Shown piece after piece: positions 25,925 to 31,826 of a stretch of DNA of 37,997 bases. The stretch is from positions 1 through 37,997 of the forward strand of contig WVZK01000082.1 in NCBI GenBank assembly GCA_011772475.1, read 5' to 3'. Position 1 is the first letter of the stretch; the number at the start of each line of letters is the position of its first letter. Made by a program: the position numbers and the translations under genes. The stretch comes from Candidatus Aminicenantota bacterium. GTDB taxonomy: Bacteria; Acidobacteriota; Aminicenantia; Aminicenantales; Aminicenantaceae. The notes beneath the pieces are model-generated. The model had not been told where the DNA came from. It ran no database searches and saw only the letters and a program-made list of their open reading frames with translations.

Positions 25925-25955
25925 ACTATGCCCGGTTTCGTTTGTGAGAGGTATA

Positions 25956-26588
25956 ATGGATAAGAGTCGAAGCAAATATTTCCAATCTGTTGCTATTCAT
26001 TTTTTCAGGCACCGTGGGGCTCCCTTTTTGCTCTCTTCCAAAGAGCTCGATTATATTGCGAGATGGGAGAAGATGGGAGTCCCTCTTCATGTTGTTTTGG
26101 AAGGAATCGAGAGATCGTTTGAGAGTTACAGGAGAAAACCAGGGAGAAAGGCTAAAATCCAATCTCTTGCTTTCTGTGAGCTCCAGGTACTAAAAGCATT
26201 TGAGCAGGATAGAGAAAGAAAAGTTGGACACAAAAAAAGGATAGTAGAAAGGCATGAGAAGAGAGATCGAGCCAAGGCCGAAATCGAGAGGTTTTTAGCA
26301 AAAATCCCTCAGCAGGTAGGGTATTTGAAAGAAGCTTTTTCTCTGGCTCATAAAGTGCTTTCTCAAAGTCATTTTGATGAGGAGGAGCTGGAGCGAATTG
26401 AGGGAAAAATAGAGGACCTTCTCCTGAATAATTCTGAGGAAGAGGAGAAAGAGAGGGTGAAAAGCGGAGTTCTGAAAGACTACGAGTTCCAACAAGACGA
26501 GGAATTTGAAAGGATTTTCAAGATAAAACTAGTCAAGGTTTTAAGGGATAATTATAAAATTCCGTATATCTCTTTATTTTATTATTGA
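25956..26588 (+). CDS. conserved protein of unknown function upstream of RNase R
   Basis: A 210-residue soluble, highly charged protein. I recognise no named family. The N-terminal part (FFRHRGAPFLLSSKELDYIA, then MGVPLHVVLEGIERSFESYR) resembles an uncharacterised conserved protein that I recall from Acidobacteria and Deltaproteobacteria. The middle, about 75-160, is rich in Lys, Arg and Glu and probably helical. A GTG at 25944 is also in frame; I chose the ATG at 25956 because AGAGG lies four bases upstream. The stop codon overlaps a possible TTG start of rnr, so it is likely translated with RNase R and may act with it; that last step is inference. Confidence 0.65.
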   Translation: MDKSRSKYFQSVAIHFFRHRGAPFLLSSKELDYIARWEKMGVPLHVVLEGIERSFESYRRKPGRKAKIQSLAFCELQVLKAFEQDRERKVGHKKRIVERHEKRDRAKAEIERFLAKIPQQVGYLKEAFSLAHKVLSQSHFDEEELERIEGKIEDLLLNNSEEEEKERVKSGVLKDYEFQQDEEFERIFKIKLVKVLRDNYKIPYISLFYY

Positions 26589-26596
26589 GAATAAAG

Positions 26597-28666
26597 ATGG
26601 AAAGCGAGATCGTCTCTCTGCTCCGGAAAAGAAGAGAAGGCTTGAGTTTTCAAAGAATTGCCAAGGAACTATATGTCGTGCCCAGAGAAAAGCAGCTTTT
26701 AAGAAAGACTCTTAGAAGACTGGAAAGCCACGGTGTCATCCTCAAGCTTAAAAGACAATATTTTGTCCCTGCCAAGTCAAACATAATAAAGGGAAGGTTC
26801 GTTGCCTCTCCCCGAGGATTTGGCTTTGTTATCCCCGAAGAAGGGAGTTCTGATGATATTTTTATTCCTGCCCGTTATTCTGGAGACGCCCTCAAAGGAG
26901 ATGTTGTAGAGGTCCTGTATCGGGAAAAGGGGAAAAAGGGGAAGCCCGAAGGACGAGTAATCAGGATAGTGAAAAAGGAAGCAGAGAGAATGCTGGGTCT
27001 TTATAAGGAAAGGTGGGGAAAAGCTTTTTTTCTTCCGTTTGACTCGCCTTCTCCTGATGAAATTCCTTTGGCTCCTGAAGAGCATCTTTCTCCTCAATCA
27101 GGGATGATCGTTGAGGTGGATAGAAGCTCTAAGCGTTTGATGGACGTTCTCGGTATGCCCGATGACCCGGGAGTAGACACCAAGGTTGTCATCAGGAGAT
27201 ATAATTTAGCTTTTTCCTTTTCAGAGGAAGCCCTCGCTGAGGCCGCAGAGTACTCATCTGAAATCAGACCTCAGGACAGAAAATACAGAAAAGATTATCG
27301 AAACTGGAAGATTGTGACTGTTGATGGCGAAAAAGCCCAGGATTTTGACGATGCGGTGAATGTGAGAAAGCTTGGCAACGGGCATTTTCGTCTTGGAGTC
27401 CACATTGCCGATGTTTCCCACTATGTAAAGCCTGGCACCGCCCTGGATGCGGATGCCTATGACAGAGGAACGAGTGTTTATTTCCCTGATCTCACTCTCC
27501 CTATGCTGCCTGAGAGGCTTTCCAACGATATCTGCAGCCTCAGACCTCGAGAAGAGAGGCTTACTTTTTCAGTTTTGCTTGAAATAGATTATAAAGGTGA
27601 AGTTTTAAAGACTGAATTTCATCCCTCTTTGATTCGAACAGCGGAAAGGATGACCTATAATTCTGTTTACCGGATATTTGAAGGGGATGAGGAGGAGAAG
27701 GAAAAATTTTCAGAACTGGTTCCTGATTTATTGCTGATGAGAGACCTGGCTCGCATTTTGAGAGCAAGAAGGGCAAAAGAAGGGAGCCTTGATTTTGACC
27801 TCCTCGAGCCTGAACTCGTGTATAAAGAAGGAAGTCTCGATTCGATCGTACCTTTTGAGCACAATGAAGCCCACCGAGTAATTGAGGAATTTATGCTTGC
27901 GGCCAACGAGGCAGTAGCTTCCTTTCTCGGAGGAAAAGGCGTTTCCCTGATGTACAGAATACATCCTCCCCCTGGTATTAAAGATTTGGAAAAGCTCAGG
28001 GATATACTGGCTCATTTTGGCCTTTCTCTCCCCTCGCCAAAAAAAATACGCTCCCAGGACTTACAGCATGTCCTGGAGGAGGTTGAGGGGAAGGATGAGG
28101 AGAAATTTATCAGTCTGCGGATTTTGAAATCCCTGAAACTGGCGGTTTATTCAGAAGAAAACATGGGCCATTATGGTCTTGCCAAAAAGGAATATACCCA
28201 CTTCACCTCTCCCATCCGGAGGTATCCAGACCTGTCCGTTCATAGGATTTTGAAAAAAGTCCTCAGGAACGAACGCCCAAAAATGCCCTTACTCTCTTCG
28301 GTCGCGCTTCACTGTTCCCAAGAAGAACGAAATGCTGAGGAAGCAGAGAAAGAACTCATAGAGTGGAGAATCTACCGGTTCCTGAAAGGGAAGCTCGGCG
28401 ATGAATTTGAAGGCATAATCGTTGATTTCACCAAAGCGGGATTAGTCGCGGAGCTTGAGGACTATTTTGTGGACGGCATAGTCTCCTATTCTGACTTGGG
28501 TGGAGATTACTATTTTAAAAGATCAGAAAAAACACTTATCGGAAGAAGAACGGGGAGGAAATACGAATTAGGAGATAGACTGCGAGTAGCGCTGGCTTCA
28601 GTTGACCCCATCATGAGGAGGATGACTTTGACGTTAAGCCCGGAAAGGAAGGAAAAGGCGCGATGA
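26597..28666 (+). CDS. rnr: ribonuclease R (RNase II family exoribonuclease)
   Basis: A 689-residue 3'-5' exoribonuclease, shorter than the 813 residues of E. coli RNase R mainly at its ends. In order: a winged-helix domain (1-60), a cold-shock RNA-binding domain (GRFVASPRGFGFVIP at 66-80), the RNB catalytic domain with four aspartates D243, D249, D251 and D252 in the standard spacing, and a C-terminal S1 domain (about 600-685). It should degrade structured RNA processively. The frame also allows a TTG at 26585 overlapping the preceding stop codon; neither start has a good ribosome-binding sequence. The stop codon overlaps the start of the SelB-like gene. Confidence 0.94.
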   Translation: MESEIVSLLRKRREGLSFQRIAKELYVVPREKQLLRKTLRRLESHGVILKLKRQYFVPAKSNIIKGRFVASPRGFGFVIPEEGSSDDIFIPARYSGDALKGDVVEVLYREKGKKGKPEGRVIRIVKKEAERMLGLYKERWGKAFFLPFDSPSPDEIPLAPEEHLSPQSGMIVEVDRSSKRLMDVLGMPDDPGVDTKVVIRRYNLAFSFSEEALAEAAEYSSEIRPQDRKYRKDYRNWKIVTVDGEKAQDFDDAVNVRKLGNGHFRLGVHIADVSHYVKPGTALDADAYDRGTSVYFPDLTLPMLPERLSNDICSLRPREERLTFSVLLEIDYKGEVLKTEFHPSLIRTAERMTYNSVYRIFEGDEEEKEKFSELVPDLLLMRDLARILRARRAKEGSLDFDLLEPELVYKEGSLDSIVPFEHNEAHRVIEEFMLAANEAVASFLGGKGVSLMYRIHPPPGIKDLEKLRDILAHFGLSLPSPKKIRSQDLQHVLEEVEGKDEEKFISLRILKSLKLAVYSEENMGHYGLAKKEYTHFTSPIRRYPDLSVHRILKKVLRNERPKMPLLSSVALHCSQEERNAEEAEKELIEWRIYRFLKGKLGDEFEGIIVDFTKAGLVAELEDYFVDGIVSYSDLGGDYYFKRSEKTLIGRRTGRKYELGDRLRVALASVDPIMRRMTLTLSPERKEKAR

Positions 28667-29745
28667 AGACGAGTTGCTTTGATGCGGAAGTAAATTTTTC
28701 CTCGGGTGATGCAGAAAAACCAGTGGATTTGTCTCTTCTTGTCAAAGGAGAGAAGGTTTCTGCTTCTTTTTTCTTCTATGAAAAAGTACAGCTAGAAAAG
28801 CAGGCGGTTCATGTTCGCGTCCACCTTCGCCATCCCCTTTTGCTGAAATGGAAGGATAGTTTTAAAGTCCAAGGGTCGGGAAAGACGCCTCTTCGAGGAG
28901 AGGGGCGCGTTCTTAATCCCTTCTCGGAGAAAGTCACCCGGGGGAAGATAAAGAAAAAAATTGCCTTTCTCGAGCGGCTTCAGGGCGATGAGAAAGAAAT
29001 GCTTCTTGCTCTGGTCCAAGAAAAAGGCCATAAAGGTCTAAAGGAAAGAGATATAACCCAATTTACCTCCCTTATAAAGAGGATCATCCAGCGTTTGGCT
29101 CAAGAGCTTGAGGCTGAAGGTAAGATAAGAATCCTCACCTTCTCGCCTCTCTTTCTTCTTTCCCAGGAGAGCCTTGATTTTCTCTGCAAGAGAATTCTCA
29201 GATTCCTGGCTCAGTTTCATCAAAGCCACCCTGAACAGAAGGGAGTGTCTCGAGAGGGATTAGAGACTAGATTTGAGCTTGACCCCAAGATTCTCTCCTT
29301 AGCCTTAAAACATCTCTCGCGAGCAGGTCAAATTAGTGAGTCTGAGGACAAGCTTGCCCTATCCGAATTTACCATGACTCTCACCCCTGAAGAGGAAGGC
29401 ATTTTGAACGAGCTTGAAGCTTTGTGCTTCAAGGGAGAATTTCGCTCGTACTCTTTTGAGGACCTTCGCCAACGTTTTCGTCTCTCCTCAAAAAGGCTGG
29501 ATAGTTTGCTTTCTCTTCTGGTAGAAAGGAAAAAGGTCGTCCAGGGAAAGGATGGATTGATCCTTCATTCCAAATGGCTGGATGAAATTATCTCTAGGAT
29601 TGAGAAATCAAGAAAAAGGGAGTTAACTGTTGCGGATTTTAAAGAAATGACTGGCCTCACTCGTAAATATGCTATTCCTCTTCTTGAGCTTCTGGATCAA
29701 ATGGGAGTGACCCGAAGGAAAGGCCACATTAGAGAAATCTTGTGA
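28663..29745 (+). CDS. SelB-like protein lacking the GTPase domain
   Basis: A 360-residue protein that resembles the C-terminal part of the selenocysteine elongation factor SelB. Residues about 5-90 look like SelB beta-barrel domain III, ending in the equivalent of the GGG-VL-P turn (LRGEGRVLNP at 77-86). Four winged-helix units follow at about 100-165, 168-235, 238-305 and 308-360. The last (LTVADFKEMTGLTRKYAIPL, then DQMGVTRRKG) closely matches the SelB domain that binds the SECIS hairpin. No G1-G4 GTP-binding motifs exist, and upstream is only rnr, so this is not a truncation at a gap. The ATG overlaps the rnr TGA. An RNA-binding role tied to RNase R is inference; a degraded SelB is the alternative. 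Confidence 0.75.
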   Translation: MKTSCFDAEVNFSSGDAEKPVDLSLLVKGEKVSASFFFYEKVQLEKQAVHVRVHLRHPLLLKWKDSFKVQGSGKTPLRGEGRVLNPFSEKVTRGKIKKKIAFLERLQGDEKEMLLALVQEKGHKGLKERDITQFTSLIKRIIQRLAQELEAEGKIRILTFSPLFLLSQESLDFLCKRILRFLAQFHQSHPEQKGVSREGLETRFELDPKILSLALKHLSRAGQISESEDKLALSEFTMTLTPEEEGILNELEALCFKGEFRSYSFEDLRQRFRLSSKRLDSLLSLLVERKKVVQGKDGLILHSKWLDEIISRIEKSRKRELTVADFKEMTGLTRKYAIPLLELLDQMGVTRRKGHIREIL

Positions 29746-29750
29746 ATTTT

Positions 29751-31826
29751 TTACTGCTTCTTTTTCTTGGATTTGTCTAATGCTGTTTTGAGTTTTTCGG
29801 CAAAGTCTCCAAAGACGGTTCCCTCAGAGACATAAGGTTTAAACTTTTCCTTTTTTTCTTTTGCCCGAGCTTCTTCTTCGGCTTCTTTTTTCTCCTGTGC
29901 TTTAATTGCTCTGAGGGCTTCCTGTTCATATTCTTCTATTTCTATTTTCTCCTCTATAATTCTTTTCTCTCCCTTTCTTGCCCGGCCAACTCTTTCGGCC
30001 TCTATCCTCAGCCTCTTTTTCTTTGAGATTTTTTCTCTTTTTCCTGGGACCTTCTCAATCTCTTCCTCTTTTATTATCGCTTCCTTAACAGGTTCAAAGG
30101 GAGCTTCGAGTCTAATCTCCTCTCTTCTCTCTTCTTTGATCTCTGGAGCAGGGATTTCCTCAACCGGCGCTTCAGAGGGGGGAGTTGGCGGGGCTTCCTC
30201 AATTTCTTCTGGAGGAGGTGCTTCAGGCAGGATTTTTTCAGGAACCTCAGGCTTTACTTCCTCTTCAACCTCAATTTTTTCTCTGTAGAAGAAAATCCCC
30301 TTATCTTTTTCTGATGGAAAGAATCCCGGTGAGTTAAGCAGAGTTTTTTCTACTTCTTCCTGAGTGGTTTGTTTTAAGATGTCGACCATATGATATGCTC
30401 TTAAATAATGGAGAGCGAAATTGTTGGTTTCCAAGCCGAAGTTTTTAAAGATGAGGATTAAAAGTTCCCCGAGATTCAGCTTATCTCTTTGGGGGTAGAG
30501 GGAAAAAAGTCCGTTAAGAGTTTCTCTTTTTAGATGAATGATTTTGTTAGGTAGAGAGAAGGTGAAAGCCTCTTGCCCGCTGGTGGAGAATATATCTTCT
30601 TTAGAGTCATAGTTTATTTTCAATATAGGGAGCTTTTTCTTTGACTTCTTCAGCGAGAAGTTGAATTGAGTAGGACTCTTTCTTTCCAGAGTCAGGCGCG
30701 CGCCTTGGGGAACATTATTGCTCTCGAAGAAGTCCTCTAATCCCAGAAAAAAGGCAGATGATGGGTAATAGAAAACAGTGTAGTCCTTCTCTTCGTCTTT
30801 GTCGCTGAAAATGTACTCTCTGGAATGCGATAATTCCTTGTTAAGACTTTTTGAAACTTTAACGCCCCCGGAGAGAATTTCTCTCCAGGTAAGGTAGGTT
30901 TGTAAAGGGAATTCATGAGTCTGGGTTATCTCCTGTTTCTCTTCTTTGCTAAAAACAGGAAGTTTTGCTTTAGGAGCAGATAGGGGTAAACCCTCGGGGA
31001 AAGAATTAAGGATCTTCTTCAGATGCCATTTACCCCACTCCTGGGGAGAGACATGTATAAATTCCTTCTTGTATTTTTTTTCAAGTGTATAGTTTAAGCT
31101 CATGCAACAAAGTTCGAAGAGGTCATCCGTACTTTCCATGCTAAAAAATTTATTCACCAACTCATCTGATGTGACCGATAATTTCTTCTCCTGGAGATGG
31201 TTTTTTATTTCCTTTATTTTTTTCTCCTGGATCTCAATTTGCTTCTCGTTGAGTTGCCAGTAATCGTTCCAGCAGAAAAATTTTGATGACTTGGAAAGGG
31301 TAGAGCGCAGATTTTTCTCCAGCGTTTTTAAATCCTTATCCGTCATAGGAAGTTCACTCAGTCTTGGATCTTTCTTTTTTTCTATGATTTCCGGAGTCTT
31401 TGCTTTTCCTTCGGCGTTACTCGGCAGGAGAACTTGAGTTTTGCTTTTCTTCATGTAATCGATGTATTTTCGGAATATTCCACCTCCAGAGTAATCAACT
31501 TCGAGCATCTCGCAGTTGAAGTCTGCATAGGCGACTTTCCCGACAACTGTTAAAACAACAGCTCCTTTAAACGGTTCCACTCCCTTACTGCTGACCATCA
31601 AGGGTTCATCATATTCTTTATAGATTAGGTCGCCGATTTCATAGATGCATAGCGGATCGTATCTCTTGACCTTGTGACCTAGCTGGCTTGAAGTCTTCTG
31701 GTAGGCCATTTTTTTTGTTATTTCTGGGAGAGAAATAGGTTTGTTGCTTTTAGAGAATTCTTTTTCAATGAACAAAAGATCTTTTTCAGTGATTTCTGTG
31801 TTTTCTATCTCTTTTTCCATCGTCAT
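29751..31826 (-). CDS. large conserved-looking protein of unknown function
   Basis: A 691-residue soluble protein that I do not recognise. Residues 1-135 look like a small helical domain joined to a beta-rich one (YEIGDLIYKEYDEPLMVSSK at 62-81). Residues 160-270 are charged and helical. The region 440-515 is helical and could be a winged-helix unit. Residues 515-590 are rich in Pro and Glu and probably disordered, followed by a Lys/Glu/Arg-rich helical tail (590-665) and a basic end (KSKKKKQ). It is the last gene of the operon with cpgs-like, arcC and argF, two bases after the argF stop codon. ATG codons at 31826 and 31820 are both possible starts. The codon pattern holds throughout, so it is a real gene. 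Confidence 0.7.
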   Translation of the reverse strand: MTMEKEIENTEITEKDLLFIEKEFSKSNKPISLPEITKKMAYQKTSSQLGHKVKRYDPLCIYEIGDLIYKEYDEPLMVSSKGVEPFKGAVVLTVVGKVAYADFNCEMLEVDYSGGGIFRKYIDYMKKSKTQVLLPSNAEGKAKTPEIIEKKKDPRLSELPMTDKDLKTLEKNLRSTLSKSSKFFCWNDYWQLNEKQIEIQEKKIKEIKNHLQEKKLSVTSDELVNKFFSMESTDDLFELCCMSLNYTLEKKYKKEFIHVSPQEWGKWHLKKILNSFPEGLPLSAPKAKLPVFSKEEKQEITQTHEFPLQTYLTWREILSGGVKVSKSLNKELSHSREYIFSDKDEEKDYTVFYYPSSAFFLGLEDFFESNNVPQGARLTLERKSPTQFNFSLKKSKKKLPILKINYDSKEDIFSTSGQEAFTFSLPNKIIHLKRETLNGLFSLYPQRDKLNLGELLILIFKNFGLETNNFALHYLRAYHMVDILKQTTQEEVEKTLLNSPGFFPSEKDKGIFFYREKIEVEEEVKPEVPEKILPEAPPPEEIEEAPPTPPSEAPVEEIPAPEIKEERREEIRLEAPFEPVKEAIIKEEEIEKVPGKREKISKKKRLRIEAERVGRARKGEKRIIEEKIEIEEYEQEALRAIKAQEKKEAEEEARAKEKKEKFKPYVSEGTVFGDFAEKLKTALDKSKKKKQ

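What the first reader, a model, noticed from the sequence alone, without database searches (positions are those of the whole stretch)
28663..29745. GTPase-less SelB-like protein overlapping the RNase R gene
The protein keeps SelB domain III and four winged-helix units, including a near-canonical SECIS-binding unit at 308-360, but has no G1-G4 motifs. Its ATG overlaps the rnr stop codon. SelB uses these units to grip an RNA hairpin, so a stand-alone version could recognise a structured RNA and bring it to, or shield it from, RNase R. This would be a new use of the SelB fold.
Basis: partly seen in the sequence, partly recalled or inferred. Interest (0 to 1): 0.72.

Follow-up and report, generated by a model that had tools for sequence, protein, structure and literature searches.

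The report
GTPase-less SelB remnant beside RNase R
Across a whole class of uncultured bacteria (the Aminicenantes), the hairpin-gripping half of the selenocysteine factor SelB lives on as a separate, conserved protein, even where selenocysteine is absent, so an RNA-recognition tool seems to have been put to an unknown new use.

Summary
Window 28663-29745 encodes an intact 360-residue protein: SelB/EF-Tu domain III (residues 1-88) plus four winged helices (108-360). It has no GTPase domain, and its ATG overlaps the rnr stop codon. The model (pLDDT 90) matches the SECIS-RNA-bound SelB domain at 2.2 Å. It is not half of a split gene: the genome also has a complete SelB with its own RNA-binding end.

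The stand-alone form occurs in about 131 of 142 genomes of the class and forms one clade. Most of these genomes lack selA. Selection is strongest on the RNA-gripping winged helix 4, whose key residues are shared with real SelB. The translation domains erode: 471-aa forms keep domains II and III, ~360-aa forms keep domain III, ~256-aa forms keep only the winged helices.

In the window's order it directly follows rnr in 31 of 31 loci examined. In three sister families one gene (pgi) intervenes. A fourth keeps the protein but has no RNase R, so RNase R cannot be an obligate partner.

Best reading: a SelB-derived, GTPase-free RNA-hairpin-binding protein acting in post-transcriptional control, probably with RNase R where both exist. 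The RNA target is unknown; none was found in the operon.

The parts
28663..29745 (+). Stand-alone SelB C-terminal protein ('SELC'), 360 aa, no G domain and no domain II
28663..28926 (+). Residues 1-88: SelB/EF-Tu domain III (beta barrel); least conserved part, lost in some relatives
   Evidence: VIA Z about 10.5-11 to SelB/EF-Tu domain III, 83-93 residues, 2.3-2.4 Å; conservation and dN/dS; shorter forms G043, G007
28984..29163 (+). Residues 108-167: winged helix 1
   Evidence: model secondary structure and match to 2v9v/1lva
29164..29382 (+). Residues 168-240: winged helix 2 (PF09106)
29383..29568 (+). Residues 241-302: winged helix 3
29569..29742 (+). Residues 303-360: winged helix 4, SECIS-binding type (PF09107); most conserved unit; R334, K335, E342, D345, T350, R352 shared with SelB
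29662..29667 (+). Codons of R334-K335; R334 aligns with Arg606 of Moorella SelB
   Evidence: alignment, 1lva numbering; conservation
28663..28666 (+). ATGA overlap of the rnr stop and the SELC start (translational coupling expected); 4-bp overlap kept in 22 of 31 loci of the order
26585..28666 (+). rnr, RNase R (TIGR02063, 689 bits), upstream operon partner
25944..26588 (+). orf214, unknown, operon member in the order (coaX-orf214-rnr-SELC)
   Evidence: no Pfam/NCBIfam family; synteny

Best explanation
The gene encodes a former SelB elongation factor reduced to its RNA-binding half. Shown by sequence, fold and evolution: the G domain is gone, the domains that handle tRNA and the ribosome are eroding, and the four winged helices persist, with winged helix 4 and its SECIS-gripping residues the most conserved part, in organisms that mostly lack selenocysteine. 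Inferred: the protein still grips an RNA hairpin through winged helix 4, but uses this for post-transcriptional control of one or more transcripts (shielding the hairpin, blocking it, or presenting it) rather than to deliver Sec-tRNA. Inferred with less support: because the gene is translationally coupled to rnr in the order, the bound RNA or its fate is usually tied to RNase R, an exonuclease that unwinds structured RNA; the protein would decide which hairpins RNase R reaches or stops at.
For: Fold and sequence: (1wsu, SelB with SECIS RNA: 2.2 Å over 119 residues, Z 14.9). R334, K335, E342, D345, T350 and R352 are identical or near-identical in stand-alone copies and true SelBs. Winged helix 4 has the highest conservation (0.76 against 0.37 for domain III) and the lowest dN/dS (0.06-0.12). 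Progressive N-terminal loss: 471 aa (domains II+III kept), about 360 aa, about 256 aa. One clade, SH-aLRT 99. Present in about 131 of 142 genomes of the class. selA above cut-off in only 21 of 60 relatives, and none in f8-f12 genomes sampled. rnr linkage: 31/31 loci of the order, 22 with a 4-bp overlap, kept where flanks are rearranged (L047, L050, L051, L053).
Against: No target RNA found: no excess synonymous-site conservation in orf214, rnr, SELC, coaX or birA, and Rfam finds only a tRNA and a sub-threshold hit in the window. Winged helices often bind DNA. f9 keeps the protein without full-length RNase R, and there some winged-helix-4 features weaken (P339 kept in 38%, Y336 in 62%). All binding claims are inferred; nothing was measured.
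Confidence: 0.6

Rival explanations
1. Dedicated RNase R partner: SELC binds RNase R and delivers or protects hairpin RNA.
For: Directly downstream of rnr in 31/31 order loci, 22 with 4-bp overlap; rnr-pgi-SELC in f8, f10 and f12. RNase R of the order has a very short C-terminal tail after S1 (1-13 residues, few K/R), so targeting in trans is conceivable. rnr-smpB operons give a precedent for an RNase R gene next to a translation-linked RNA-binding partner (PMC12320835).
Against: f9: SELC in 30 of 34 genomes, no full-length RNase R. f8 has both SELC and a K/R-rich RNase R tail, and tails are short in several phylum members without SELC. Co-transcription can be housekeeping: valS-birA-coaX lie in the same run.
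Confidence: 0.25
2. Ribosome-associated factor: SELC docks on the 30S subunit or stalled ribosomes, as SelB does, and senses mRNA structure downstream of the ribosome.
For: SelB domain 4 holds the SECIS through all steps on the ribosome (PMC5311926); domain III, and in f8 domain II, are kept; RNase R acts on 30S subunits and in ribosome rescue (PMC12320835); SmpB present in 18/18 genomes tested.
Against: Domain III is the fastest-evolving part and is missing in at least two lineages; no G domain to drive a ribosome cycle.
Confidence: 0.15
3. Still a selenocysteine component, such as a SECIS-binding antagonist of SelB or an autoregulator.
For: Winged-helix-4 residues shared with SelB; the window's own genome has selA fragments, a full selB and an apparent tRNA-Sec gene.
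Against: 15 of 29 high-quality relatives have no selA hit while nearly all carry the protein; none of the f8-f12 genomes sampled has selA.
Confidence: 0.04
4. DNA-binding transcription regulator: the winged helices were turned back to DNA binding.
For: Winged helices are common DNA-binding folds (general knowledge).
Against: The kept residues are those shared with an RNA-binding unit, and the closest solved complexes carry RNA (1wsu, 2uwm, 2ply, 2pjp).
Confidence: 0.1
5. Decaying pseudogene or split selB.
For: Lacks the N-terminal half of SelB.
Against: Intact frames in 57 of 60 relatives, dN/dS 0.12-0.21, complete SelB elsewhere.
Confidence: 0.01

Closest known systems
Bacterial SelB (selenocysteine elongation factor), C-terminal domain 4 (Moorella 1lva/1wsu/2uwm; E. 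coli 2pjp)
   Same: Four winged helices, winged-helix-4 RNA-gripping residues, domain III, direct homology
   Different: No G domain and no domain II in the window's protein; separate gene next to rnr; present without selA or SelB
Archaeal aSelBL
   Same: SelB paralogue with a disrupted G domain, wider distribution than the Sec trait, unknown function (PMC4342817)
   Different: Archaeal; the G domain is degraded rather than absent; archaeal SelB C-terminal domains are not conserved with the bacterial ones
RNase R-associated factors (SmpB next to rnr in Firmicutes; Hfq)
   Same: RNA-binding protein linked to rnr, by gene order or function (PMC12320835; PMC7587437, abstract only)
   Different: Unrelated folds; a physical link to RNase R is untested here

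Membership tests
SelB elongation factor (TIGR00475 equivalog) | GTPase domain with G1 motif | tested here: not met
   No G1 motif in any of about 70 copies; model starts at domain III
SelB elongation factor (TIGR00475 equivalog) | Score above the curated cut-off over the full length | tested here: not met
   66.6 bits against 242.25; profile 305-575 only
SelB elongation factor (TIGR00475 equivalog) | Accompanies selA and tRNA-Sec | tested here: not met
   selA above cut-off in 21/60 relatives and in none of the f8-f12 genomes sampled, while the protein is nearly universal
SelB elongation factor (TIGR00475 equivalog) | C-terminal winged helices with SECIS-binding winged helix 4 | tested here: met
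   PF09106 and PF09107 above cut-off; 1lva Z 17.5, 1wsu Z 14.9
SelB elongation factor (TIGR00475 equivalog) | Binds SECIS RNA and Sec-tRNA | not testable with these tools
   needs a binding assay
PF09107 SelB winged-helix domain family | Score above gathering threshold | tested here: met
   60.1 against 23.2 bits
RNase R partner | Gene adjacency to rnr | tested here: met
   31/31 loci of the order; but pgi between in f8, f10, f12, and not adjacent in f9
RNase R partner | Occurs only where RNase R occurs | tested here: not met
   f9 has the protein without full-length RNase R
RNase R partner | Physical complex with RNase R | not testable with these tools
   needs a pull-down or a complex prediction
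Archaeal aSelBL | Archaeal SelB paralogue with a degraded G domain | tested here: not met
   Bacterial genome, G domain absent, bacterial-type winged helices

The most novel reading that the evidence does not exclude
A bacterial class turned its selenocysteine factor into a GTPase-free, hairpin-specific RNA-binding regulator that acts with RNase R, deciding which structured RNAs are degraded; the trait outlived the loss of selenocysteine and became a core gene of the class.
Probability: 0.25. Interest if true: 0.82.

Novelty: new variant of a known kind. Interest (0 to 1): 0.62.

Why it matters
SelB's hairpin-gripping end has been described as part of a selenocysteine elongation factor. Here the same unit is a free-standing, nearly universal gene in a large class of uncultured bacteria, mostly without selenocysteine, and coupled to an exonuclease gene in most of its lineages. 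This suggests how a recoding factor can become a general RNA-binding regulator, and it provides a series of intermediates (domains II+III, III only, neither) in living lineages. It also makes a direct experiment possible: CLIP or SELEX on this protein would reveal its hairpin. In the open papers searched, no bacterial stand-alone form was described.

Tried and rejected
Split-gene or pseudogene reading: rejected. Selenocysteine role: rejected for most genomes. RNA element inside the operon: a synonymous-site scan over 12-14 genomes gave no window above the shuffled 95% limit; Rfam found only a tRNA and a sub-threshold FuFi-1 hit. RNase R tail replaced by SELC in trans: tail lengths do not track SELC cleanly. 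Phage or plasmid origin: no phage match; 3 weak plasmid matches, one annotated selB. Within-class origin: the free tree puts class SelBs apart from the stand-alone clade, but the test could not reject a clade of stand-alone plus class SelBs (p-AU 0.85, and that tree scored better), so whether the protein descends from the ancestral SelB or from a duplicate within the class is open. The scan of genome contigs with the single protein found only two Aminicenantes loci; phyla other than this one were not surveyed.

Full report
What is there. Window 28663-29745 (+) is an intact 360-codon gene whose ATG shares the four bases ATGA with the stop of rnr. Its product matches SelB winged-helix families well above their cut-offs (PF09107 60.1 bits, PF09106 43.9 bits). 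It matches only the C-terminal part of the SelB equivalog model, far below its cut-off (66.6 against 242 bits). By sequence it matches the crystallised RNA-binding end of Moorella SelB (E 6e-23).

Structure. An AlphaFold2 model built on an alignment of 52 natural sequences reached mean pLDDT 90. Residues 1-88 superpose on domain III of SelB and EF-Tu (Z about 10.5-11). Residues 108-360 superpose on Moorella SelB 377-632 (Z 17.5). Residues 240-360 superpose on the SelB fragment solved with SECIS RNA, 1wsu, at 2.2 Å over 119 residues. The protein therefore begins at the start of domain III. Arg334 falls on Moorella Arg606, which I recall (not tested here) as a SECIS-contacting residue.

Not a split or dying gene. 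The genome has a second, complete SelB (642-residue open frame) on contig 198 with its own PF09107 domain and G1 motif, with selA fragments at contig ends and a sequence resembling tRNA-Sec, with two undetermined bases, just downstream. The stand-alone protein is intact in 57 of 60 relatives by the search tally, of which G037 is represented only by its full SelB. dN/dS is 0.12-0.21, similar to rnr, with winged helix 4 at 0.06-0.12 and domain III at 0.19-0.49.

Distribution. PF09107 is found in 134 of 142 genomes of the class. By matching each hit to its locus I count about 131 genomes with the stand-alone form. One apparent absence, G375, is a contig that ends inside the gene. Stand-alone copies form one clade (SH-aLRT 99) apart from the full SelBs. 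Whether that clade derives from the ancestral SelB or from a duplicate within the class is not resolved. The two named public records found are Candidatus Aminicenantes.

Independence from selenocysteine. selA passes its cut-off in 191 of 297 genomes sampled across the phylum, but in only 21 of 60 close relatives, and in none of the sampled genomes of families f8-f12. In other classes of the phylum the homologues are, with few exceptions, open frames of SelB length, and every full-length one checked carried the G1 motif.

A series of losses. Family f8 has 471-residue forms that keep domains II and III without the G domain; the model's first 210 residues fit EF-Tu domains II-III. Most forms, including this one, keep domain III. 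Family f2 (for example G043) and genus g4 (G007) have about 256 residues, winged helices alone, in separate parts of the tree. Winged helix 4 is the most conserved unit in every stand-alone group (0.69-0.76), and R334, K335, E342, D345, T350 and R352 are shared with real SelBs; domain III is the least conserved.

Neighbourhood. In the window's order SELC lies directly downstream of rnr, same strand, in 31 of 31 loci examined; 22 keep the 4-bp overlap. This holds where the flanks have been rearranged (L047, L050, L051, L053). In f8, f10 and f12 the order is rnr-pgi-SELC. Family f9 has SELC in 30 of 34 genomes but no full-length RNase R (only nine have a clear hit, to a shorter RNB protein), and its SELC lies among unrelated genes such as a glycosyltransferase, an S46 peptidase and TPR proteins. 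RNase R is therefore a frequent neighbour but not an obligate partner.

Mechanism. The retained and lost parts point one way: what handled tRNA and GTP was discarded or is eroding, and what gripped an RNA hairpin is under the strongest constraint. The most likely function is hairpin RNA binding used for post-transcriptional control, probably together with RNase R where both exist. Shown: homology, fold, domain loss, conservation, linkage, and independence from selA and from rnr. Inferred: RNA binding, the regulatory role, and any contact with RNase R. I looked for a target hairpin in the operon by synonymous-site conservation and in the window with Rfam and found none.

Known context. Archaeal aSelBL is a SelB paralogue with a disrupted G domain and unknown function (PMC4342817). 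RNase R sits next to SmpB in some Firmicutes and acts on 30S subunits (PMC12320835). Searches of open papers for SelB with RNase R, Aminicenantes with selenocysteine, and SelB without its GTPase domain found no description of this bacterial form; subscription journals were mostly not covered.

Noticed in passing
window 25944-26588 (+): orf214: no Pfam or NCBIfam family, yet conserved between coaX and rnr across the order; not seen next to rnr in the other families of the class that were examined.
   Followed up: partly
window 29751-31826 (-): orf691: no family match, Lys/Glu-rich C-terminal part, conserved next to ornithine carbamoyltransferase and carbamate kinase, also in families f10 and f12 (L088, L091).
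   Followed up: partly
f9 genomes of the class (e.g. G141, G387, G404): No full-length RNase R; only nine f9 genomes have a clear RNB hit, in open frames mostly of about 500 residues, apparently another subfamily.
   Followed up: partly
L094:10700-10790 (G000 contig 198): Sequence resembling tRNA-Sec directly downstream of selB, with two undetermined bases (NN); ARAGORN does not call it.
   Followed up: partly
L096 and L097 (G027): This genome has two different full SelB genes besides the stand-alone protein.
   Followed up: no
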